The position numbers and the translations under genes were made by a program. The notes under the pieces were generated by a model that saw only the letters and a list, made by a program, of their open reading frames with translations, was not told where the DNA came from and ran no database searches. From Neorhizobium sp. NCHU2750 (lineage in GTDB: Bacteria; Pseudomonadota; Alphaproteobacteria; Rhizobiales; Rhizobiaceae), in assembly GCF_003597675.1 (NCBI RefSeq), contig NZ_CP030828.1, forward strand, positions 186,001 to 250,000: a stretch of 64,000 nt of DNA. The letters run 5' to 3'. This document shows, piece after piece, positions 53,280 through 64,000 of the stretch. How positions within the stretch are numbered: the first letter of the stretch is position 1; each line of letters opens with the position of its first letter.

Positions 53280-56069
53280 ATGAACCTTTACTTGGACTAC
53301 CTGGCTGAGATCAAAAGCAGAGAAACTCAAGGGCTCGCGCCGAAGCCGATCGATGACGGCGCGCTTGTCGCCGAGATCATCAAGCTGATCGAGGATGCGG
53401 GCAGCGAGCATCGGAAAGATGCCCTGCATTTCTTCATCTACAATACGTTGCCGGGTACGACCAGCGCAGCGGGCGTGAAGGCGGCATTCCTCAAGAAAAT
53501 CATTCTCGGCGAGACCATCGTCCCCGAGATCACTCCCAAATTCGCTCTCGAACTTCTTTCCCATATGAAGGGCGGACCGTCGGTGAAGGTTCTTCTCGAC
53601 ATCGCCCTTGGCGATGCGCCGGCAATTGCCGCGCAGGCAGGAGAGGTCCTGAAGACCCAGGTCTTCCTTTACGATGCCGACATGTTCCGCTTGCGCGATG
53701 CCTACAAGGCAGGCAACGCCGTCGCGAAGGGCGTGCTGGAGAGCTATGCCAAGGCCGAGTTCTTCACCAAGCTTCCCGATGTCGAGGACGAGATCAAGAT
53801 CGTCACCTTCATCGCCGCCGAAGGCGATATCTCGACGGACCTTCTGTCTCCCGGCAATCAGGCGCATTCGCGGTCGGACCGTCAGTTGCACGGCCAGTGC
53901 ATGATCACGCCGGAAGCGCAGGCGGAGATCGTCGCGCTACAGAAGCAGCATCCCGACAAGCGGGTGATGATGATCGCTGAAAAGGGCACGATGGGCGTGG
54001 GTTCGTCGCGCATGTCCGGCGTCAACAACGTGGCGCTTTGGACGGGCAAGCAGGCAAGCCCCTACGTCCCCTTCGTCAACGTGGCACCGATCGTTGCAGG
54101 CACCAACGGCATCTCGCCGATTTTCGCCACAACCGTGGACGTGACCGGCGGTATCGGCCTTAACCTGAAGAACTGGGTGAAGAAGACCGGCGAAGACGGC
54201 AAGCCGATCCTGAACAACGAAGGCAATCCGATCCTCGACCAGAAGTTCTCGGTCGAGACCGGAACTGTTCTGAAGATCGACGCCAAGACCAAGAAGCTGC
54301 GTGACGAGAATGGCGAGGAACTGGTGGATATCGCCTCCTCCTTCACGCCGCAGAAGATGGAGTTCATGAAGGCGGGCAGCTCCTACGCCATCGTTTTCGG
54401 CAAGAAGCTCCAGACCTTCGCCGCCCAGGCGCTCGGCGTCGAGCCGACGCCGGTATTTGCGCCGAACAAGGAAATTGCCATCGAAGGTCAGGGCCTCACT
54501 GCCGTCGAAAAGATCTTCAACCGCAACGCGGTGGGCGTTACGCCGGGCAAGATCCTGCATGCAGGTTCGGACGTTCGCGTGAAGGTCAACATCGTCGGCT
54601 CGCAGGATACGACCGGCCTGATGACAGCGCAGGAGCTCGAGGCGATGGCGGCAACCGTCATCTCGCCGCTGGTTGACGGCGCCTATCAGTCGGGCTGCCA
54701 TACGGCATCCGTCTGGGACAAGAAGGCCCAGGCGAATATTCCGAAGCTGATGTCCTTCATGAACAATTTCGGCGTCATCACCGCGCGTGACCCGAAAGGC
54801 GTGTACCATTCGATGACGGACGTCATCCATAAGGTGCTCAACGACATCACCGTGGATGATTGGGCGATCATCATCGGCGGCGACAGCCACACGCGCATGT
54901 CCAAGGGCGTGGCCTTCGGTGCCGACTCCGGCACGGTGGCATTGGCACTGGCAACCGGCGAGGCGACCATGCCGATCCCGCAGTCGGTCAAGGTGACCTT
55001 CAAGGGCACGATGCATCCGTACATGGACTTCCGCGACGTTGTCCATGCAACGCAGGCGCAGATGCTCAAGCAGTGTGGCGACAACGTCTTCCAGGGCCGT
55101 ATCATCGAAGTGCATATCGGTACGCTGCTGGCCGACCAGGCCTTCACCTTCACCGACTGGACGGCTGAAATGAAGGCCAAGGCCTCGATCTGTATCACCG
55201 AGGACGAGACGCTGATCGAGTCGCTCGAAATCGCCAAGTCGCGCATCCAGATCATGATCGACAAGGGCATGGACAATGCCGCGGCTACACTGAAGGGCCT
55301 GATCGACAAGGCTGACCAGCGCATCGCCGAAATCCGTTCGGGTGAAAAGCCTGCGCTCTCTCCGGATGAGAATGCGAAATATTTCGCCGAGGTGGTAGTT
55401 GATCTCGACATTATCGACGAGCCGATGATCGCCGATCCCGATGTCAACAATGCCGATGTCTCCAGGCGCTATACCCACGACACGATCCGCCCCGTTTCCT
55501 ATTATGGCGGCACCAAGAAGGTCGATCTCGGCTTTGTCGGTTCGTGCATGGTGCATAAGGGCGATATGAAGATCGTCGCACAGATGCTCAAGAACCTGGA
55601 AAAGGATACGGGCAAGGTGGAATTCAAGGCGCCGCTCGTCGTCGCGGCTCCGACCTACAACATCATCGACGAATTGAAGGCCGAAGGGGATTGGGAAATC
55701 CTCCAGAAGTATTCGGGCTTCGAGTTCGATGACCTGAAGCCGAAGACCACCAATCGCACCGAATACGAGAACATCCTGTACCTCGAGCGGCCGGGCTGCA
55801 ATCTCTGCATGGGCAACCAGGAAAAGGCGGAGAAGGGCGATACCGTACTGGCCACCTCGACTCGTCTATTCCAGGGGCGCGTCGTAGAAGACACCGCTGA
55901 AAAGAAGGGAGAATCGCTTCTCGCCTCGACGCCGGTAGTGGTCCTGTCGGCGATTCTTGGAAGGACGCCGAGCGCGGAAGAGTACAAGGCAGCGGTCGAA
56001 GGAATCGACCTCACCAAGTTCGCTCCGCCGAAGGCAGCTCCGATCGATTCCCTGTCCGTTCAATACTAA
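53280..56069 (+). CDS. acnB: Aconitate hydratase B / 2-methylisocitrate dehydratase
   Basis: Cytosolic Fe-S enzyme of 929 residues that interconverts citrate and isocitrate and can act on 2-methylisocitrate. AcnB layout: N-terminal HEAT-like domain (1-160), swivel domain (about 165-390), then the catalytic domains. 4Fe-4S ligands are Cys756 (GFVGSCMVHKGD), Cys840 and Cys843 (PGCNLCMGNQEKA); substrate-site segments GGDSHTRMS and SGCHTASVWD are intact. It is about 60 residues longer than the 865-residue E. coli enzyme, partly from an insert between Cys756 and Cys840. It stands alone, without other cycle genes. Most alphaproteobacteria rely on AcnA, so this may be a second aconitase. Confidence 0.95.
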   Translation: MNLYLDYLAEIKSRETQGLAPKPIDDGALVAEIIKLIEDAGSEHRKDALHFFIYNTLPGTTSAAGVKAAFLKKIILGETIVPEITPKFALELLSHMKGGPSVKVLLDIALGDAPAIAAQAGEVLKTQVFLYDADMFRLRDAYKAGNAVAKGVLESYAKAEFFTKLPDVEDEIKIVTFIAAEGDISTDLLSPGNQAHSRSDRQLHGQCMITPEAQAEIVALQKQHPDKRVMMIAEKGTMGVGSSRMSGVNNVALWTGKQASPYVPFVNVAPIVAGTNGISPIFATTVDVTGGIGLNLKNWVKKTGEDGKPILNNEGNPILDQKFSVETGTVLKIDAKTKKLRDENGEELVDIASSFTPQKMEFMKAGSSYAIVFGKKLQTFAAQALGVEPTPVFAPNKEIAIEGQGLTAVEKIFNRNAVGVTPGKILHAGSDVRVKVNIVGSQDTTGLMTAQELEAMAATVISPLVDGAYQSGCHTASVWDKKAQANIPKLMSFMNNFGVITARDPKGVYHSMTDVIHKVLNDITVDDWAIIIGGDSHTRMSKGVAFGADSGTVALALATGEATMPIPQSVKVTFKGTMHPYMDFRDVVHATQAQMLKQCGDNVFQGRIIEVHIGTLLADQAFTFTDWTAEMKAKASICITEDETLIESLEIAKSRIQIMIDKGMDNAAATLKGLIDKADQRIAEIRSGEKPALSPDENAKYFAEVVVDLDIIDEPMIADPDVNNADVSRRYTHDTIRPVSYYGGTKKVDLGFVGSCMVHKGDMKIVAQMLKNLEKDTGKVEFKAPLVVAAPTYNIIDELKAEGDWEILQKYSGFEFDDLKPKTTNRTEYENILYLERPGCNLCMGNQEKAEKGDTVLATSTRLFQGRVVEDTAEKKGESLLASTPVVVLSAILGRTPSAEEYKAAVEGIDLTKFAPPKAAPIDSLSVQY

Positions 56070-56249: not shown

Positions 56250-58022
56250 TTATGATCCGTTCGATTGATGCGGCCTCTCAGCTTTTGCGTCCTTTTCTAT
56301 GGAGATCGGTGCTTCAAGGCAGACGCAATTGCGGCCAGCGGACTTGGCTGCATACAGAGCCTTGTCGGCGGCACGAAACAGGTCGTCGGAGCTTCTGCCC
56401 GGCCTGCTTTTCGCGACTCCAAAGCTGGCAGTCACATTCAATGTCTGATCGGGGCTGATGGTTATCCCTGTATCGGCTATCGCTTCGCGAAGAGATTCGG
56501 CGACGCGTCTCAGCACTTCGATATTTGCGTTTTCGATCAATATTGCGAACTCCTCTCCTCCGAACCGCGCGACGATATCGCCTGAGCGCACATTGCGGGA
56601 AAGAAGCTGGGCAACCGACTTCAGTACGGTGTCACCAGTGGCATGGCCGTAGGTATCATTGATGCTTTTGAACCGGTCTATGTCCACGATAATCAGGCCG
56701 ACATCTGGCTTAGCAACAACTCCATCGCGAGAGGGGGAAAACCTCTGATCGAAGCTGCGGCGGTTCAGCAGCCCGGTCAGACCGTCCGTCGTCGCTTGAA
56801 ACATAAGCTGCGCGGTCAGTTGCTGTCGCTCCAGGAGCTTTGCTCGCAGGACGTTGAGCGCCGTGAATACTTCCTCGATCTCGGCCCTACCTTTTTCGGG
56901 GGGCAGATCGGTATCGAGTTCTCGATCCTCCGCCAGCAGAACAATATGGTCACGCGCTTTCAGCAGAGGCTCGAATATCATTCTTTGCGTGCCAACCAAG
57001 AGCACGACGTCGATGAGCACGATGAGTACTGTGAGGACAGCGACCCAGAAGAACCAAAGCGAGGCCGAATGCAGCTCACGATCTGCCTTTTCCAGCATCA
57101 GATTGAGGTAAGAGAGGCGAATTTGCTCGAGCGGTGCGAAAGTCGGCACAATGGCATCGGTCATCGTCGCTGTCGTGAACGAGAAGTTTCCGGTTGCCGC
57201 CTCCCTTTCCAGGCGGTCGACGATATCCATCCCATCGCCGAAAAAGATGACTTCGACATCGGCAATGGACTTGGAAAGCGACGGATATCGTTCCAGATGT
57301 GGTCTCGTTAATTCCCACAGCTGACGAATTCGGCCGAAGGTCTGTTGCAGTCTCTTTTGATCGTCGGCGGTAATGGCTGCGCGTTTGGCGATATAGGGCG
57401 TCAGGATCGAACCGAGGCGGCCGGCAAAATCTCGGATTTCGAAGAGATTCTGGCCGATCAGCGCCTGATCCGCCAAGCTCTCGCCACTGCCATTCGTTTC
57501 CAGTGCGGTCGCATTGATAAGCGGGCGAATGGCATCGACGGCATTGAGCATTCCGCTGATCGCTTCGCGGATCATTCCCAGGTCTCGGTCCGCGAAAGGT
57601 CGAGCAAGAAGTCTGTCGACCTTCAGCCTCGCCTCCGCAAGCTCGGTCTTGGTTCGCAACAGTTCATTCTTCCCCTTCTCCGGGTCAAGCTGGGTGATGC
57701 GCTGCAGACTTTCATTGCTATTGGCTCGGAACTTTATCAGGCGCTGTGCTACTTCCGAACTTGGGGCAAAATCCCCTCCAAGCATCGTGTTCGTGGGGCC
57801 ACGCTCGGCTGATATGACGTTGGCTGCGATCAGGACTTCACGATAGAGCCTAAGCGCTTGATGGCTGCGCTTCGCATGCAGATAATGGCTTGCTATCGTG
57901 ATCAAGAGCGCTGCGGCAAGCGCCAGTGACAAGCCAAGAAGAGTAAGGCAGCCATAGGCCACTTGCGCGCGCAGTGCAGTTTTCCGAAGCGATAATCTTT
58001 CGATGATACGCGGCACTCCCAA
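56250..58022 (-). CDS. Membrane-anchored diguanylate cyclase (GGDEF domain)
   Basis: Inner-membrane c-di-GMP synthase of 590 residues. First span at about 22-47, a long helical periplasmic sensor region (48-315) of unknown ligand, second span at about 320-345, a HAMP-like linker, then the GGDEF domain (about 410-570). The active site is GGEEF with an intact inhibitory site R-x-x-D five residues before it (RSGDIVARFGGEEF), and DIDRFKSINDTYGH supplies Mg2+ ligands. No EAL domain. The start is TTG at 58022, 8 bases after AAGGAGG; a GTG two codons on is the alternative. It is convergent with acnB and probably a monocistronic signalling gene. Confidence 0.93.
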   Translation of the reverse strand: MGVPRIIERLSLRKTALRAQVAYGCLTLLGLSLALAAALLITIASHYLHAKRSHQALRLYREVLIAANVISAERGPTNTMLGGDFAPSSEVAQRLIKFRANSNESLQRITQLDPEKGKNELLRTKTELAEARLKVDRLLARPFADRDLGMIREAISGMLNAVDAIRPLINATALETNGSGESLADQALIGQNLFEIRDFAGRLGSILTPYIAKRAAITADDQKRLQQTFGRIRQLWELTRPHLERYPSLSKSIADVEVIFFGDGMDIVDRLEREAATGNFSFTTATMTDAIVPTFAPLEQIRLSYLNLMLEKADRELHSASLWFFWVAVLTVLIVLIDVVLLVGTQRMIFEPLLKARDHIVLLAEDRELDTDLPPEKGRAEIEEVFTALNVLRAKLLERQQLTAQLMFQATTDGLTGLLNRRSFDQRFSPSRDGVVAKPDVGLIIVDIDRFKSINDTYGHATGDTVLKSVAQLLSRNVRSGDIVARFGGEEFAILIENANIEVLRRVAESLREAIADTGITISPDQTLNVTASFGVAKSRPGRSSDDLFRAADKALYAAKSAGRNCVCLEAPISIEKDAKAERPHQSNGS

Positions 58023-58473
58023 AGGCCACTCCTCCTTATGTGATTGGTGCTCCTGTTTTACGGGAAAATCAACAATGACTAATTAAAGTTCAGGGGGAAT
58101 ATTCGAGTCTATGCAACCTTTGCGGTGAACTCGCGCGTAACGGCGGTTTCTTACTTTGACAGCATGTGCTCGAAAGCCGATGGCTATGGAGAACCCTGCG
58201 GCACATCAGATCGAACTCAAGATGAGTTATGACGGTAGTCGATTTTACTTCTGTCTGACGGCGCGCCTCAACGATGCCGCTTCGATGATCGATTTGCTCA
58301 TTTTTCCTGCACCGGTTGCGCAAGCCTTAAGCATATGATCTAGCGAAGAAATTTTACTGCGCGGAACGACAAGAATATGTGCGCCCGCCGACAATGGTAC
58401 TCGGCCCGATTGCCCCTAAGCTCCATCCTGTCTGCTGCGTGAAAAAAGCAGCATCTAACCAATGGAGCGGGAC
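58023..58473. other. Divergent intergenic region
   Basis: About 450 bp holding the promoters of the cyclase (minus) and of the ABC operon (plus). No supported gene: 60-77-residue frames at 58090-58338 lack ribosome sites. TGCTGC (58433-58438) and GCAGCA (58448-58453) form a 6-bp hairpin 20 bp before the binding-protein start. Confidence 0.5.
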
Positions 58474-59394
58474 ATGAAAACATTTGGAACTGGGAGTATT
58501 AAGACCCTTCGCCGGACATGGCTTGGCCTCGGCTTTGCTGCCCATCTTTTCGCGGCCGCAATGGGTGCTGTAATCTTCGCGCCATCGTCGGAGGCCCAGG
58601 CCGCAGCACCGGCTGCCTGCGCCGACCTGCAGGCAAAATATCCGTCGTTGAAGGGCAAGACGCTGGTCAACGCCATCAATCCGCATACGCCGGGCTACGA
58701 AGCGCTCGATCCGAACGATCCGACCAAATATGTCGGCTTCGACATCGATCTTGGCGAGGCGATCGGTGATTGCCTCGGGTTCAAGGTGGAATACAAGTCT
58801 GTCACCTTCGCCGCACTTTTGACGACGCTGCAGGCCGGCCAGGCGGATATCGTCATTTCCGATATCTACGCCACCAAGGATCGCGCCAAGGCCGGCGACT
58901 TCATCACTTATCTGAAGGTCTATGACGGCGTTCTCGTCGCCAAGGGCAATCCGAAGAAGATCGATGGCATCAACAAGTCGCTCTGCGGCACGGTTGCCGC
59001 TGAGAACACTGGCTATGTCGAGGTACCGCTGATCCAGGCACTGGAGGCGGAATGCAAGGCAGCCGGACTGGCGGCGCCTGAAATCCAGCTCTACGACAAC
59101 AATGCCAACTGCATCCAGGCGATCCTGGCCGGCCGCGCCGACACCTATATCAACGACGTCAACACCGTCGATGGTGCGGTCAAGGCCTATCCTGACAAGC
59201 TGGAAAAGGCGACGGCCGTCACCTTGCCCTACTCGGTCGGCATCGCCGTGCCGCTCGGCAAGCATGACTTCCGCGCAGCGATCATGGCGGCCCTCACTGA
59301 AATCCAAAAGTCCGGCCAGCAGGTCGAGATGATGAAGAAGTGGAACCTTCCGGAAGCCCAGATGGAAGAGCCTAAGCTCGTTCTGGCCGACTGA
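58474..59394 (+). CDS. ABC transporter substrate-binding protein, amino-acid family 3
   Basis: Periplasmic binding protein of 306 residues, SBP_bac_3. Long signal peptide (LGLGFAAHLFAAAMGAVIFA region, cleavage near residue 45). Marks: KYVGFDIDLGEAIGDCLG, VTFAALLTTLQAGQADIVIS and AAENTGYVEVPLIQALEAEC. The ATG at 58474 follows GGAGCGGGAC; an earlier ATG at 58462 is less well placed. It opens the operon with the permease-ATPase fusion, amidase and AraC-amidase gene. Polar amino acids or opine-like compounds are the usual ligands. Confidence 0.92.
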   Translation: MKTFGTGSIKTLRRTWLGLGFAAHLFAAAMGAVIFAPSSEAQAAAPAACADLQAKYPSLKGKTLVNAINPHTPGYEALDPNDPTKYVGFDIDLGEAIGDCLGFKVEYKSVTFAALLTTLQAGQADIVISDIYATKDRAKAGDFITYLKVYDGVLVAKGNPKKIDGINKSLCGTVAAENTGYVEVPLIQALEAECKAAGLAAPEIQLYDNNANCIQAILAGRADTYINDVNTVDGAVKAYPDKLEKATAVTLPYSVGIAVPLGKHDFRAAIMAALTEIQKSGQQVEMMKKWNLPEAQMEEPKLVLAD

Positions 59395-59462: not shown

Positions 59463-61070
59463 ATGGATCTCTTCCTTCATTATCTCAGCCAGCCCTACCT
59501 GATGACCGGCATCGTCTATACGCTGCTGATCACCTGTTATGGGCTCGCCGGCGGTGCCGTCATGGGTATCGTGCTTGCCGCCATGCAACTCAGCCGCTTT
59601 CGCATGCTGGCAGTCATTGCGCGCGCTTACGCAATCATCTTTCGCGGCACGCCGCTGATCCTGCAGATGATCTTCTGCTACAATGCCTTGCCGATGATCG
59701 GCATCCGACTCACCGCCATCGAGGCGGCAAGCCTGGCGCTCGCATTGAACGAGGCGCCGTTCATCGCCGAAATCATCCGCGCCAACGTAATTGCCGTCGA
59801 TCGTGGACAGATTGCGGCAGGTCAGGCGCTCGGCATGCGGCCACTTGCGATCATGCTGCGCATCGTCGTGCCTCAGGCCTTCCGCACCATGGTGCCCGGG
59901 CTCGGCAATGAGGCGGTCAGCGCGCTGAAGAATTCTTCGCTCGCCTCGGTCGTATCGGTGCAGGAACTGACCCTGCGCAGTACCCAGCTGGCATCATCGA
60001 CCTTCGACTTCTTCTCTATCTTCTTCGCCTCCGGGTTGATGTATCTGGTCCTGACAGGCGCGATTGCCGTCATCCAACTCGTCGTTGAAGCAACGCTGGA
60101 CCTCGAAAAGCAGAAGAATGGCAGCAGTTTGGAGCGGCTTCTACCCTGGCGCCGGGCGGAGACTGTTGAAGATCTCCCCGCCGATCCTGTGCCCCCGGTC
60201 GTTGCTGTTGAGGTGCCGCTGCCGCCCGCAACTGTGAAAGCATCGCGCCCGCTCGACAAGGAGAAGCGTTGGGCGGCGCTCACCACCAGTCGTGCTGCAG
60301 TTGACATCCGCGATCTGCGCAAGAGCTATTCTGGTCGTACGGTATTGGGCGGACTAAGCCTCGATGTGCGCATCGGCGAGGTGGTGGCACTGCTGGGACC
60401 AAGCGGATCCGGAAAGAGCACGCTTCTGCGCTGCATCAATCACCTGGAAACCTGGGACAGCGGGGTGATCGAGGTTCTCGGGCGACGGATCGGCACCGGA
60501 GCGGACGGAAAGCCGCTTTCTCCGCGTGCGATTGCCAATGAGCGAGCCAGTGTCGGTGTCGGCATGGTATTCCAGAATTTCAATCTGTTCGGCCACCTGA
60601 CGGCCAGGGAGAACATTGCAGGCCCGCTACGTTGGGTACAGGGGCTCTCGGTCAGCGAAGCGGGCCGACGGGCAGATGAACTTCTCGCCCGCGTCGGTCT
60701 TTCGCATCGGGCAGATGCCCTGCCACGTCACATGTCGGGTGGCCAGCAGCAGCGTGTCGCCATTGCCCGAGCGCTTGCGCCCAATCCCGCCATCCTGCTT
60801 CTCGACGAGCCGACCTCGGCGCTCGATCCGGAACTGGTCAGTGAGGTGCTTGAGGTGATCCGTCGGCTGGCAGTCGAGGACGGGCTGACAATGGTGATTT
60901 CCACCCACCAGATCGGCTTTGCCCGCGATGTGGCCGACCGGGCGGTGTTTCTCGCCGAAGGTGTGATTGTCGAACAGGGGGCTGCAGACGAAATGCTTGT
61001 CAGACCCAAGAACCCGCGCACCGCGCAATTCCTTCAGATCATGGAAGACGAGGCCGGCCAGACCGTATGA
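59463..61070 (+). CDS. Amino-acid ABC transporter permease/ATP-binding fusion protein
   Basis: Inner-membrane protein of 535 residues combining both transporter functions. Residues 1-225: HisM-type permease with about five spans, FRGTPLILQMIFCYNALPM and EAA loop GQIAAGQALGMRPLAIMLRI. A proline-rich linker (about 228-262) follows. Residues 278-530: ATPase with Walker A GPSGSGKST, FQNFNLFGHLTARENI, signature MSGGQQQR, ILLLDEPTSALDPELV and switch STHQIGFARDVA. A homodimer would give the full 2+2 transporter. Fusions of this order are known in other bacteria. It works with the binding protein at 58474. Confidence 0.93.
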   Translation: MDLFLHYLSQPYLMTGIVYTLLITCYGLAGGAVMGIVLAAMQLSRFRMLAVIARAYAIIFRGTPLILQMIFCYNALPMIGIRLTAIEAASLALALNEAPFIAEIIRANVIAVDRGQIAAGQALGMRPLAIMLRIVVPQAFRTMVPGLGNEAVSALKNSSLASVVSVQELTLRSTQLASSTFDFFSIFFASGLMYLVLTGAIAVIQLVVEATLDLEKQKNGSSLERLLPWRRAETVEDLPADPVPPVVAVEVPLPPATVKASRPLDKEKRWAALTTSRAAVDIRDLRKSYSGRTVLGGLSLDVRIGEVVALLGPSGSGKSTLLRCINHLETWDSGVIEVLGRRIGTGADGKPLSPRAIANERASVGVGMVFQNFNLFGHLTARENIAGPLRWVQGLSVSEAGRRADELLARVGLSHRADALPRHMSGGQQQRVAIARALAPNPAILLLDEPTSALDPELVSEVLEVIRRLAVEDGLTMVISTHQIGFARDVADRAVFLAEGVIVEQGAADEMLVRPKNPRTAQFLQIMEDEAGQTV

Positions 61071-61104: not shown

Positions 61105-62346
61105 ATGAAACACTACACACTGCCAGTTTCGCCTTCCACGGTGCATTGGGGCTATTTCAGCAAGGCGGTCGAACCGGCTCTGGTGCTGAAGTCCGGTGAC
61201 CGCGCGACGATCGAAACGCTCACCCATCACGCCAACGACGATTACGAGCGGATGATCGAAGGTGATCCGGCAGCGGAAGCGATCTTTCACTGGACGAAGG
61301 AACAGAAGACGATCTCGCGACGTGGTTCAGGCCCAACCGAAGGACCGTTCAAGATCGGAGCAGGCGAGGGGGTTGGTGTTCATCTTTTGACCGGTCCCAT
61401 CGCCATCGAGGGCGCCGAACCGGGCGATATCCTGGAGGTGCGCGTTCTCGATGTCCGACCGCGCCCAAGCTGCAGCGCCTGCTATGCCGGTCGTTGCTTC
61501 GGCTCGAATGCAGCAGCGAACTGGGGCTTTCACTATCACGACCTGATCGAGGAGCCGAAGCCACGCGAAGTAGTAACAATCTTCGAGCTGGACACAGCCG
61601 GCGAGCCCTTTGCCAAGGCAGTCTACAATTACATCTGGACGCCGCAGACCGATCCGGACGGCATCGTCCATCCGACCATCGATTATCCCGGTGTTCGGGT
61701 CGATCATCGGTTGGTCAAACGGCGTGAAAATATCCTGCAAAATGTGCGCGTTCCTGCACGCCTGCATTTCGGCACGATGGGCCTGGCGCCGGCCGAAGCC
61801 GATTTCGTCAGCTCCATCCCCCCTTCCTATACAGGCGGCAATATTGATGACTGGCGGATCGGCCGCGGTGCACGCATGTATTACCCGGTCGCCGTCGACG
61901 GCGCCTATTTCTCCGTCGGTGATCCCCATGCGGCACAGGGCGATAGCGAACTCGGCGGCACGGCGATCGAGACATCGCTGACCGGGGATTTCGAATTCGT
62001 CCTGCACAAAAAGGAGGATCTGGCCGGCACGATCCTCGAAGGGTTGTCGCATCCGATGCTGGAAACCGAGGAGCAGTGGTCGGTCTATGGCTTTACCTAC
62101 GCCAACTATCTCGAAAGCCTCGGTGTCAACGCGCAAACGGAAATCGCCCAGCATTCCAGCGTCGACCGTGCAATGCGCGATGCATTTCGCAAGCTCCGCC
62201 GCTTCCTGATGACCGCGCATAAACTCAGCGAGGACGAGGCGATCGCATTGATGTCGGTCGCGGCTGATTTCGGTGTGACGCAGGTGGTCGACGCCAATTG
62301 GGGCGTTCACGGATCGATCCGTAAGAACGTATTCCGATGCTATTGA
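61105..62346 (+). CDS. Acetamidase/formamidase family protein
   Basis: Predicted cytosolic amidase of 413 residues (FmdA/AmdA family) releasing ammonia from a short amide. Marks: VHWGYFSKAVEPAL, SGDRATIETLTHHAND, IFHWTKEQKTISRRGSGP, GAGEGVGVHLLTGPI, EPGDILEVRVLDVRPRP, CFGSNAAANWGFHYHDLI and DAGDPHAAQGDSE-like VGDPHAAQGDSELGGTAIE. The ATG at 61105 has GGAGAA upstream. It follows the transporter gene by 34 bp and its last codons overlap the AraC-amidase frame. Substrate is presumably an amide or formyl compound imported by the upstream system; the family's best-known substrates are formamide and acetamide. Confidence 0.9.
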   Translation: MKHYTLPVSPSTVHWGYFSKAVEPALVLKSGDRATIETLTHHANDDYERMIEGDPAAEAIFHWTKEQKTISRRGSGPTEGPFKIGAGEGVGVHLLTGPIAIEGAEPGDILEVRVLDVRPRPSCSACYAGRCFGSNAAANWGFHYHDLIEEPKPREVVTIFELDTAGEPFAKAVYNYIWTPQTDPDGIVHPTIDYPGVRVDHRLVKRRENILQNVRVPARLHFGTMGLAPAEADFVSSIPPSYTGGNIDDWRIGRGARMYYPVAVDGAYFSVGDPHAAQGDSELGGTAIETSLTGDFEFVLHKKEDLAGTILEGLSHPMLETEEQWSVYGFTYANYLESLGVNAQTEIAQHSSVDRAMRDAFRKLRRFLMTAHKLSEDEAIALMSVAADFGVTQVVDANWGVHGSIRKNVFRCY

Positions 62347-64000
62347 GACCGGGTCTGGCATTTCCTTCTTCGCAGGTGCAAGATAGCGGCATCAAGGCGC
62401 TCCACGCGTCGTTCCGCACCTCGGATGAAGGGATGAATGTCAGGCAGTTCATAGCCGAATCCTATCCCAGCGATACTCGCGCCGATATGTGGCGCGAGGT
62501 GCTGGCGGAGCTTCATCTTCATTCGATCGGTCCCGACGGCGAGACGGGGCGATATTCCAGCGCGATCCTGCGCGGCGACCGTCAAAGTGGCATTCTCGCC
62601 CGCCTCGTAGCCAGTTCTCAAACGCTGTCATCCATTCCGCAACGTTCCCGTATGCTGTTGGGCATTGTGCCGCTCGACACGGAAGTCGATGTCGCCGGCG
62701 ACGGTTTCAATCTCAAGGTCGACAGCGGAGCGCTGGTCGTGGTGCAGATGGACCGGCCGTGGGAGATGAGAATCTCGGGCAATAATCGAATCCTTGTCTT
62801 TGGTCTTTCCGATGCAGCCATGCAGCGGCGCGGCGCCGGATGGACACCATTTGCCGACCCTCGCTGCTATCCTTCGAAGGGACTGGCATCGGTTTTTATC
62901 CGTGCGGTAGAAAGCGCTGCGGCGGAAATGGAAGCCTTTTCAGACGCCGAGTGGCAGTCGTTCGAGCAGTTCATCGCAGATCTTTTCGTCACCATGATCG
63001 TCGAGACGGAAGCATCCGAGATGCGCTCGACGCCAAGCCTTGCGGCACTGTTCAACCGGATCACGGTAGCGATCGAAAAGCGACTGCATGATCCCGATTT
63101 GTCATCGGCCAAGGTCGCGCGGGTGGAGGGGATCTCCGAACGCTATCTGCAGAAATTGTTCGAGCAGAACGGAGAGAGTTTCACCCATTATCTGCGCGAG
63201 CGCCGCCTGCAACGCGCCCGCACGGCGTTGGTGACTTCGGCGGAAATCAGGCTTCCGGTTGCCGATGTCGCCTATAGCTGCGGTTTCAGCGATGCGGCGA
63301 ACTTTAACCGTGTGTTCAAGGAGCGCTTCGGCTTGCCACCGGGCGCGTTCCGCAATCGTCATCTTGAGAGCCAGATTGACGGCATCAACCCGGAACAACG
63401 CGGGTGGCCCGTGAAGGCTCTTGCCACGAAGAAGCAGCCCATGCGTAACGGGCTGGATGATGGCCGCAGGCGAGATGAGTGGGTTGCATCTCCGGCAGCT
63501 CGCGCCATCAGCGCCCACCACAAGCTCGGGATCGACGCCTCGAATGTTCACTGGGGGTATTTCAGCCGATCGTTGGAGCCGGTGCTGGAGATCAATTCCG
63601 GCGACACCGTGGAGATCGAGACGCTCAGCCAGCACGGCTCCGATGCGCCGGAACTGATGATTGCCGGTGATGCCGCGGCCGAGGAGGTGTTTCATTGGAC
63701 GAAGGACCGCAAGTCTGTCGATCGCCGTGGCGCGGGGCCGGTTGATGCGTCGATTTTCGGGCGTGGCGCCGGCGAGGGGTTCGGCGTGCATATCTGCACC
63801 GGCCCGATCTATGTGAACAATGCCGAGCCGGGCGACGTCATTGAGGTTCATATCGAGGATATGTTGCCGCGGCCGTGTCGTGGGCCGGGCTATGAAGGGC
63901 GATATTTCGGCAGCAATGTCGCGGCCTGGTGGGGGTATCACTACGGTGAATTGTTGAGCGAGCCGAAGCCGCGCGAGAACATCACGATATACGAGGTCTT
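62337..64000 (+). CDS. AraC family regulator fused to acetamidase/formamidase domain (3' end cut by window edge)
   Basis: One uninterrupted frame of at least 554 codons. Residues 1-225: N-terminal domain of the AraC-binding type seen in many AraC/XylS regulators (DMWREVLAELHLHSIG, then VPLDTEVDVAGDGFNL). Residues 233-342: AraC DNA-binding domain with two helix-turn-helices (VARVEGISERYLQKLFEQNG; VADVAYSCGFSDAANFNRVF, FKERFGLPPGAFR). Residues 343-395: linker without recognised motif. Residues 396-554 and beyond: acetamidase/formamidase domain (NVHWGYFSRSLEPVL, VFHWTKDRKSVDRRGAGP, GAGEGFGVHICTGPIYV, YFGSNVAAWWGYHYGEL), clearly paralogous to 61105-62346. The start at 62337 overlaps the upstream amidase by 10 bp and has a weak ribosome site. 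An internal ATG at 63441 could give a separate amidase. It may regulate the operon and sense its amide. Confidence 0.85.
   Translation, partial: MLLRPGLAFPSSQVQDSGIKALHASFRTSDEGMNVRQFIAESYPSDTRADMWREVLAELHLHSIGPDGETGRYSSAILRGDRQSGILARLVASSQTLSSIPQRSRMLLGIVPLDTEVDVAGDGFNLKVDSGALVVVQMDRPWEMRISGNNRILVFGLSDAAMQRRGAGWTPFADPRCYPSKGLASVFIRAVESAAAEMEAFSDAEWQSFEQFIADLFVTMIVETEASEMRSTPSLAALFNRITVAIEKRLHDPDLSSAKVARVEGISERYLQKLFEQNGESFTHYLRERRLQRARTALVTSAEIRLPVADVAYSCGFSDAANFNRVFKERFGLPPGAFRNRHLESQIDGINPEQRGWPVKALATKKQPMRNGLDDGRRRDEWVASPAARAISAHHKLGIDASNVHWGYFSRSLEPVLEINSGDTVEIETLSQHGSDAPELMIAGDAAAEEVFHWTKDRKSVDRRGAGPVDASIFGRGAGEGFGVHICTGPIYVNNAEPGDVIEVHIEDMLPRPCRGPGYEGRYFGSNVAAWWGYHYGELLSEPKPRENITIYEV

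What the first reader, a model, noticed from the sequence alone, without database searches (positions are those of the whole stretch)
62337..64000. AraC-type regulator joined in one frame to an acetamidase/formamidase domain
Codon-by-codon reading from 62337 to the window end shows no stop between the AraC helix-turn-helix pair (about 63037-63363) and an FmdA/AmdA-type domain starting near 63520. AraC proteins normally carry a small jelly-roll or other sensor, not an amide-hydrolysing enzyme domain. It sits directly after a stand-alone amidase paralogue and an amino-acid-type ABC transporter. The simplest idea is a one-protein sensor: the amidase-like domain binds (or hydrolyses) the inducer and the AraC part switches the operon. 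The alternative is a recent stop-codon loss that fused two neighbouring genes.
Basis: partly seen in the sequence, partly recalled or inferred. Interest (0 to 1): 0.85.

Follow-up and report, generated by a model that had tools for sequence, protein, structure and literature searches.

The report
Gene switch fused to an amidase
A soil-bacterium gene switch of the AraC type carries a complete, apparently still working amide-cutting enzyme as its third domain; hundreds of relatives share this build and many sit beside a matching DNA site in front of amide-uptake genes, so the enzyme part may tell the switch when its food is present, though this has not been tested.

Summary
It is not a recent stop loss: 240 clusters with both domains were listed in two searches, and the sampled fusions are one clade. 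The FmdA domain keeps nearly every residue that is invariant in the family and is under strong purifying selection, so it is not a decayed sensor. A conserved AraC-like operator lies in front of the ABC-transporter/FmdA/fusion operon, with a -10-like hexamer at a fixed distance. Similar sites, some weak, lie beside most examined fusions with other neighbours; none over 8 bits lies within 2 kb upstream of FmdA in 12 fusion-less loci. Best reading: a three-domain one-component activator that drives its own operon and uses an intact amidase as ligand gate, perhaps destroying its inducer (a trigger enzyme). Regulation of the local operon is well supported by inference; gating by the amidase is plausible but untested. 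The architecture is already named in database annotation; my searches of an open-access library found no study of it.

The parts
58368..58394 (+). Predicted operator GACAAGAATATGTGCGCCCGCCGACAA: two GACAA half-sites 22 bp apart around TGTGCGC, 94 bp before the SBP ORF start
   Evidence: Conserved at the same place in type I relatives; only match with up to 2 mismatches in the 6.35-Mb genome, forward 1, reverse 0, reversed-pattern control 0 and 0
58417..58422 (+). Predicted -10-like hexamer TAAGCT, 49 nt from operator start
   Evidence: TAnnnT at this exact offset in 15 of 17 type I upstream regions, one more at 48
58462..59394 (+). Family-3 (polar amino-acid type) solute-binding protein gene
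   Evidence: PF00497 E 1.2e-26; amino-acid binding protein homologues in PDB
59463..61070 (+). Fused ABC permease plus ATPase gene of the amino-acid type
   Evidence: PF00528 and PF00005
61105..62346 (+). Stand-alone FmdA-type amidase, 413 aa; its end overlaps the fusion start by 10 nt
   Evidence: PF03069 E 2.9e-32; 54% identical to the fused domain
62337..64000 (+). AraC-FmdA fusion gene, cut by the window end; full ORF is 800 aa and ends at G000:C2:250739
62592..62960 (+). AraC_binding_2 part (residues 86-208) of the N-terminal jelly-roll domain
63117..63359 (+). AraC double helix-turn-helix (residues 261-341)
   Evidence: PF12833 E 2.5e-22
63372..63512 (+). Linker (residues 346-392), fast evolving, with QRGWP element at 63396-63410
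   Evidence: R355 235 of 235, G356 234, P358 235 of 235 fusions; 35-46 residues from RGxP to the FmdA start in the 108 of 118 fusions where the pattern found both ends
63513..64000 (+). First part (residues 393-554) of the FmdA_AmdA domain, which runs to residue 798 outside the window

Best explanation
It is a single three-domain transcription activator: AraC jelly roll, AraC double HTH, and an FmdA-type amidase with an intact active site, joined by a linker with a conserved element. The AraC part binds a two-half-site operator directly upstream of the -35 region of the promoter that drives the transporter, the stand-alone amidase, the fusion itself and (here) RidA, and so activates its own operon. 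Shown by computation: one frame, three folds, kept invariant residues, one origin within the sampling, conserved candidate operator and promoter geometry in type I loci. Inferred: that the fusion binds this operator and activates. Speculative: that the amidase domain is the sensor and turns over its inducer; the substrate is unknown.
For: One 800-aa frame. Both domains in 120 of 120 listed clusters in each of two searches, 240 distinct ids including the window's own. In 397 genomes of the order, 23 matches in 20 genomes start before residue 250 and reach the end of FmdA, all without an inner stop (at most 2 candidates scored per genome). Fusions are one side of one branch, 40 of 40 rows of a 90-row tree, SH-aLRT 96. 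D639, D664, H666, D671, E673, E680 and D775 kept in 235 of 235 fusions, N637 in 234, Q669 in 230. dN/dS in four Rhizobium pairs: HTH 0.019-0.026, fused FmdA 0.035-0.039, stand-alone FmdA 0.022-0.036, N-terminal part 0.132-0.147. Operator with up to 3 mismatches in 14 of 17 type I upstream regions, none in 100 rounds of shuffles; TAnnnT 49 nt on in 15 of 17. A matrix built only from type I sites scored above at least 199 of 200 shuffles in 11 of 13 fusion upstream regions with other neighbours; a 12th has a 23.4-bit site on the other strand. None of 12 loci with FmdA but no fusion has a site over 8 bits within 2 kb upstream of FmdA. Target genes vary (ABC+FmdA, FmdA alone, TRAP+GGT) while the FmdA domain in the regulator is constant.
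Against: No expression, DNA-binding or enzyme data. An AraC jelly roll is present and could be the real sensor, leaving the amidase as a plain enzyme. The intact active site fits an ordinary bifunctional fusion as well. The fused FmdA evolves somewhat faster than the stand-alone one in three of the four Rhizobium pairs. In type II/III loci no -10-like hexamer sits at the type I offset, so the promoter geometry is shown only for type I. No operator was found in L113, L134 or L137, and the site in L130 is weak, 6.9 bits; stray matches of 8.1-14.2 bits occur in 4 of the 12 fusion-less loci, so sites of about 9-14 bits (L100, L103, L107, L133, L135, L136) are weak one by one. Some separate proteins close to the AraC half exist as database entries (P0122-P0127, P0132, P0137, P0146); most end in frame-shifted or cut FmdA by eye, but a real split cannot be excluded for all. 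R. johnstonii pRlX5 carries a copy annotated as two ORFs, broken inside the AraC part.
Confidence: 0.55

Rival explanations
1. Bifunctional fusion without signalling between the halves: the AraC part senses with its jelly roll, and the FmdA domain is simply a second amidase whose supply is tied to its regulator.
For: The active site looks intact and a complete jelly roll is present.
Against: Separate proteins close to the AraC half are few and look, by eye, mostly like truncated or frameshifted fusions. R355, G356 and P358 in the linker are nearly invariant. FmdA stays in the regulator in four loci where no other FmdA is seen in the fetched flank.
Confidence: 0.25
2. The fused FmdA domain is an assembly domain: it joins oligomers with itself or the stand-alone paralogue, bringing HTH pairs together or letting paralogue abundance feed back on the activator.
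For: Fused and stand-alone domains are 54% identical, lie side by side in type I loci, and five FmdA-family PDB entries hold four chains and one eight.
Against: No interaction data. Assembly alone would not explain why nearly all family-invariant polar residues are kept in 235 fusions. Type III loci have no FmdA neighbour in the fetched flank.
Confidence: 0.15
3. Recent stop-codon loss or assembly error fused two neighbouring genes.
For: FmdA and AraC genes are neighbours; the linker evolves fast.
Against: Same fusion in many independent assemblies across Alphaproteobacteria and Burkholderiales; one clade, and the adjacent type I stand-alone genes sit on another branch.
Confidence: 0.01

Closest known systems
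AraC/XylS one-component regulators (FeaR-like AraC_binding_2 group; fold like CuxR 5nla)
   Same: Jelly roll plus double HTH; candidate direct-repeat operator next to the -35 region; best NCBIfam match of the AraC half is FeaR, below its cut-off
   Different: A complete amidase of about 405 residues follows the HTH, so the HTH is in the middle, not at the end
FmdA_AmdA amidases, subgroup of PDB 3b9t (Methylobacillus flagellatus)
   Same: 54% identity, same fold over 399 residues, family-invariant polar residues kept
   Different: Fused behind a DNA-binding protein; position 432, H in 39 of 39 close stand-alone proteins, is Q in 231 of 235 fusions
fmd/ami amide-utilisation clusters of Methylophilus and Mycobacterium (recalled, from no call)
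   Same: Transporter, FmdA-type amidase and a dedicated regulator together
   Different: There the regulators are separate proteins
Trigger enzymes and enzyme-HTH fusions such as PutA, NadR, BirA, MocR/PdxR and Ada (recalled, from no call)
   Same: Enzyme fold and DNA-binding domain in one chain, metabolism read directly by the regulator
   Different: The listed fusions use other enzyme families; I recall none with an FmdA amidase

Membership tests
AraC/XylS regulators | Double HTH of about 100 residues above the Pfam cut-off | tested here: met
   PF12833 79.4 bits against cut-off 33.6
AraC/XylS regulators | Companion jelly-roll domain | tested here: met
AraC/XylS regulators | Direct-repeat operator at target promoters | tested here: inconclusive
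   Conserved candidate site found; binding not measured
FmdA_AmdA family | Full-length domain above the Pfam cut-off | tested here: met
   95.9 bits against cut-off 27, two stretches, best 628-798; 3b9t aligned over residues 393-798
FmdA_AmdA family | Family-invariant polar residues | tested here: met
   N637 D639 D664 H666 Q669 D671 E673 E680 in 50 of 50 non-fused rows and 149 of 149 fusions; D775 in 48 of 50 and 149 of 149
FmdA_AmdA family | Amide hydrolysis | not testable with these tools
   Needs an assay
NCBIfam FormamaseFmdA equivalog (NF045496) | Score above the equivalog cut-off of 500 | tested here: not met
   Fusion (as P0002) 58.6 bits, paralogue 69.1 bits: not to be called formamidase
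FeaR equivalog (NF007243) | Score above the equivalog cut-off of 199 | tested here: not met
   88.5 bits
Trigger enzyme | One protein with enzyme activity and ligand-dependent gene control | not testable with these tools
   Anatomy fits; activity and control not measured

The most novel reading that the evidence does not exclude
A self-resetting one-component switch: an AraC activator that binds its inducer in a built-in amidase active site and destroys it there, so that the time the promoter stays on is set by the enzyme's turnover, with a second ligand pocket in the jelly roll making it a two-input gate. The H-to-Q change at position 432, near-universal in fusions, would be the tuning that slows turnover relative to the stand-alone paralogue.
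Probability: 0.3. Interest if true: 0.75.

Novelty: new variant of a known kind. Interest (0 to 1): 0.55.

Why it matters
It gives a whole family (240 clusters listed; record names from Rhizobiales, Rhodobacterales, Sphingomonadales, Azospirillum and Burkholderiales) in which a transcription factor and a metabolic enzyme are one chain with the active site apparently intact. With the predicted operator and the adjacent stand-alone paralogue as a built-in control, it makes the question of how a metabolic enzyme becomes a gene regulator directly testable, and it gives a lead to what these transporters carry.

Tried and rejected
Recent fusion by stop loss: rejected. Decayed, catalytically dead sensor domain: rejected, family-invariant residues kept and dN/dS low. 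Amidase replacing the AraC sensor: rejected, the jelly roll is present. Internal start making a separate amidase: little support, since only 27 of the 108 fusions with a recognised linker have a Met in it (GTG/TTG starts not checked); another 10 of 118 were dropped because the pattern did not find the FmdA start. Substrate: formamide, lactam or gamma-glutamyl compound could not be decided. Neighbours hint at amides (nitrile hydratase in L133; dihydropyrimidinase and an FmdB-type protein in L130) or gamma-glutamyl compounds (GGT beside the four type III loci), each in a few loci only. AraC families absent from the VIA-align list are not excluded. A first count that two type I loci (L095, L111) lack the SBP gene was wrong, an effect of my ORF picker; one search finds it there.

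Literature: searches for acetamidase+formamidase+AraC+fusion (0 papers), acetamidase+AraC (10, judged from the search listing), formamidase+AraC+operon (17, listing), four phrases naming such a protein (0), and wider ones (listings of the top rows only). Passages only were read in PMC10433974 and PMC13296017; none of those passages describes a fusion. Subscription journals are mostly not held.

Limits: the type I operator consensus was drawn from the regions it was first counted on, so the independent tests are the type II/III regions, the fusion-less loci, and loci not used for the matrix, of which L095 and L111 have the same site as L096 and L129 the same as L034. L099 was left out of the first 17 by oversight. 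Several loci come from close relatives and are not independent. The tree is a quick one with SH-aLRT only, holds a few identical rows, and warns of long branches. Some loci repeat one record under two ids (L040/L092, L042/L093, L041/L112, L005/L043/L117; judged from equal contig lengths). Catalytic roles of the invariant residues come from no call.
Full report

Neighbourhood. Upstream on the same strand are a family-3 solute-binding protein (58462-59394), a fused permease-ATPase (59463-61070) and a stand-alone FmdA protein (61105-62346) whose end overlaps the fusion start by 10 nt; a RidA gene follows. I examined the gene order around fusions in fetched loci (records under two ids counted once). 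Type I, the order seen here, was found in 20 records: SBP, permease-ATPase and FmdA in 20 of 20 (SBP in L095 and L111, as one search missed it), RidA next to the fusion in 13 of 20. L044 is a short contig that starts inside the fusion and is not counted. Type II has the fusion divergent from a longer stand-alone FmdA: L101, L102, L104, L107-L110 and L114, 8 records (L102, because my ORF picker chose other ORFs there). Type III has the fusion divergent from DctP, DctQ, DctM and a gamma-glutamyltransferase, with no FmdA but the fused one in the fetched flank: L100, L103, L105, L106, all four gene types found in all four (the DctM match in L100 comes in two pieces). Genomes G320, G373 and G385 carry one type II and one type III fusion. 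L113 has a co-directional, distant FmdA (41%). Of nine plasmid loci, L129 and L131 are type I; L132 (Paraburkholderia) and L133 (Caballeronia) keep SBP, permease-ATPase and FmdA as one operon convergent or divergent to the fusion; L135 and L137 are type II; L130, L134 and L136 differ.

Age and spread. The best 120 of 2635 hits with the window protein and the best 120 of 2742 hits with a type III protein all carry both the HTH and the FmdA domain; ids do not overlap, so 240 clusters were seen, including the window's own and a few partial proteins. The hits below the listed 120 were not seen. Names in the listings include Rhizobium, Martelella, Roseibium, Bradyrhizobium, Ancylobacter, Thioclava, Azospirillum and Maricaulis; plasmid records add Caballeronia, Paraburkholderia, Variovorax, Novosphingobium and Sinorhizobium (17 records with a match, 15 covering at least 80% of the query). 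Among 397 genomes of the order, 45 had a match at E 1e-100 or better; 23 matches in 20 genomes start before residue 250 and reach the end of FmdA, none with an inner stop (at most two candidates scored per genome, so a lower bound; two of the 23 start at residues 129 and 184). In 385 genomes of the class, 6 had a match at 1e-80 or better, and in 398 of the phylum, 16 (both counts include lone FmdA and some of the same genomes). A search with residues 1-350 alone gave 84 hits. By eye, most close ones without an FmdA domain end in the linker, in frame-shifted FmdA sequence or in FmdA cut short; a few (P0132, P0137, P0146) end soon after the HTH on short contigs and could not be placed, and four related ones on long contigs (P0123-P0125, P0127) look frame-shifted, which may be sequencing error or real decay. 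Complete separate AraC proteins appear from about 38% identity downward (P0183, P0186 and below). In a tree of 90 FmdA domains the 40 fusions are one side of one branch (SH-aLRT 96). The fusion is therefore old and of one origin within the sampling, not a fresh stop loss.

The amidase domain is intact. Across 50 non-fused FmdA rows and 149 fusions, N637, D639, D664, H666, Q669, D671, E673 and E680 are invariant in both sets, and D775 is in 48 of 50 and 149 of 149. In a wider set of 235 fusions D639, D664, H666, D671, E673, E680 and D775 are in 235, N637 in 234 and Q669 in 230. I have no call that assigns metal ligands or catalytic roles to these residues; that they form the active site is inferred from family-wide invariance. 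One signature separates the groups: position 432 is H in 39 of 39 close stand-alone proteins and Q in 148 of 149 or 231 of 235 fusions. Nei-Gojobori dN/dS between the window's fusion and L034, L035 and L036: HTH 0.026, 0.019, 0.023; fused FmdA 0.035, 0.035, 0.037; stand-alone FmdA 0.024, 0.023, 0.022; N-terminal part 0.133, 0.139, 0.147. In the Martelella pair L037/L038 the fused domain (0.050) is level with the stand-alone (0.054), and against the more distant L037 and L039 it is slower (0.108 against 0.201; 0.114 against 0.172). The linker is saturated in the pairs with L034-L037 and 0.23-0.46 where it can be computed. In the linker R355, G356 and P358 are kept in 235, 234 and 235 of 235, which suggests more than a passive tether.

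Operator. Upstream of the SBP gene, type I loci share two GACAA-like half-sites 22 bp apart around TGTGCGC. With a consensus of 21 specified letters, 14 of 17 regions match with up to 3 mismatches and 16 with up to 5; 100 rounds of dinucleotide shuffles gave means of 0.00 and 0.14. A TAnnnT hexamer stands exactly 49 nt from the motif start in 15 of 17 and at 48 in one, which puts the second half-site directly upstream of where a -35 element would be, the usual place for an AraC-type class II activator (established knowledge, recalled). In the whole genome the pattern occurs once within 2 mismatches, at G000:C2:244368-244394 = window 58368-58394. A weight matrix from 15 type I sites was then tried on 13 regions upstream of fusions (8 type II, 4 type III, L113): 11 score above at least 199 of 200 shuffles each, L114 has a 23.4-bit site on the other strand, L113 has none; mean 13.5 bits against a maximum of -1.7 for shuffle rounds and -1.8 for column-permuted matrices. 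In whole-locus scans on both strands, that site is the best of the locus in 10 of these 13 loci and second in L107; in L110 it is under the 8-bit listing limit. Twelve loci with FmdA but no fusion have no site over 8 bits within 2 kb upstream of FmdA; four of them have stray matches elsewhere, of 8.1 to 14.2 bits, so scores in that range are not decisive alone. Loci not used for the matrix give 31.6 (L095), 27.5 (L099), 31.6 (L111), 37.4 (L129) and 26.9 bits (L131) at the expected promoter; the hexamer stands at offset 49 in L099, L111, L129 and L131, not in L095. The Burkholderiales loci L132 and L133 give 15.8 and 10.1 bits upstream of and pointing at the SBP gene, although the fusion lies elsewhere; L135 gives 12.2 between FmdA and fusion, L136 14.0 upstream of its FmdA beside other matches of 9.8-12.5; L130 is weak (6.9); L134 and L137 have no credible site. 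In type II/III loci no -10-like hexamer sits at the fixed offset, so which of the two divergent promoters is driven there stays open.

Interpretation. Well supported: one reading frame kept by selection; a DNA-binding half tied to a dedicated local candidate operator; an amidase half under selection to keep its chemistry. Inferred: autoactivation of the operon here. Speculative: sensing by the amidase. For it speak the close coupling of the two halves, the conserved linker element, the slow evolution of amidase and HTH against the faster jelly roll, and the constancy of the fused amidase while the target genes change. Against it stand the jelly roll, which may be the sensor, and the intact active site, which fits a plain second enzyme. 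Because the active site is intact, turnover of the inducer is the natural extension and is put forward as the novel case.

Known or new. Databases already name such proteins 'acetamidase/formamidase/AraC-like DNA-binding protein' or 'transcriptional regulator, AraC family with acetamidase/formamidase'. In the open-access library my searches found no paper on it (passages of two papers). Enzyme-regulator fusions are a known kind (recalled examples: PutA, NadR, MocR/PdxR, Ada), so I class it as a new variant of a known kind. The protein should not be called formamidase or FeaR: both equivalog tests fail.

Noticed in passing
L129:5053-7462 (CP140806.1, R. johnstonii plasmid pRlX5): A fusion copy about 91% identical over residues 150-800 is annotated as two ORFs, broken within the AraC part; neighbouring operon genes are annotated and the operator site is present.
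   Followed up: no
L099:2951-4339: A distant relative (27% identity) of the type III gamma-glutamyltransferase lies next to RidA at the end of a type I operon, a weak second link between the fusion family and gamma-glutamyl chemistry.
   Followed up: no
L133 left end (Caballeronia zhejiangensis plasmid p2): A nitrile hydratase subunit gene lies about 2 kb from the FmdA operon that the fusion faces, a hint at nitrile-derived amides.
   Followed up: no
L100, L103, L105, L106: Fusion paralogue divergent from TRAP transporter plus gamma-glutamyltransferase, suggesting gamma-glutamyl compounds or lactams as substrates for that branch.
   Followed up: partly
window 56250-58022 (-): A GGDEF-type (diguanylate cyclase-like, by eye) gene lies on the other strand next to the operator region; a diguanylate cyclase is also annotated next to the fusion in L133, and the best fold match of the AraC half is CuxR. 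Whether it is a conserved neighbour was not tested.
   Followed up: no
window 53280-56069 (+): 929-aa ORF that looks like aconitase B (recognised from memory, not searched) on a 765-kb contig.
   Followed up: no
L003 beyond about 15000: The rest of the fetched stretch reads N (withheld), so the region further downstream could not be examined.
   Followed up: no
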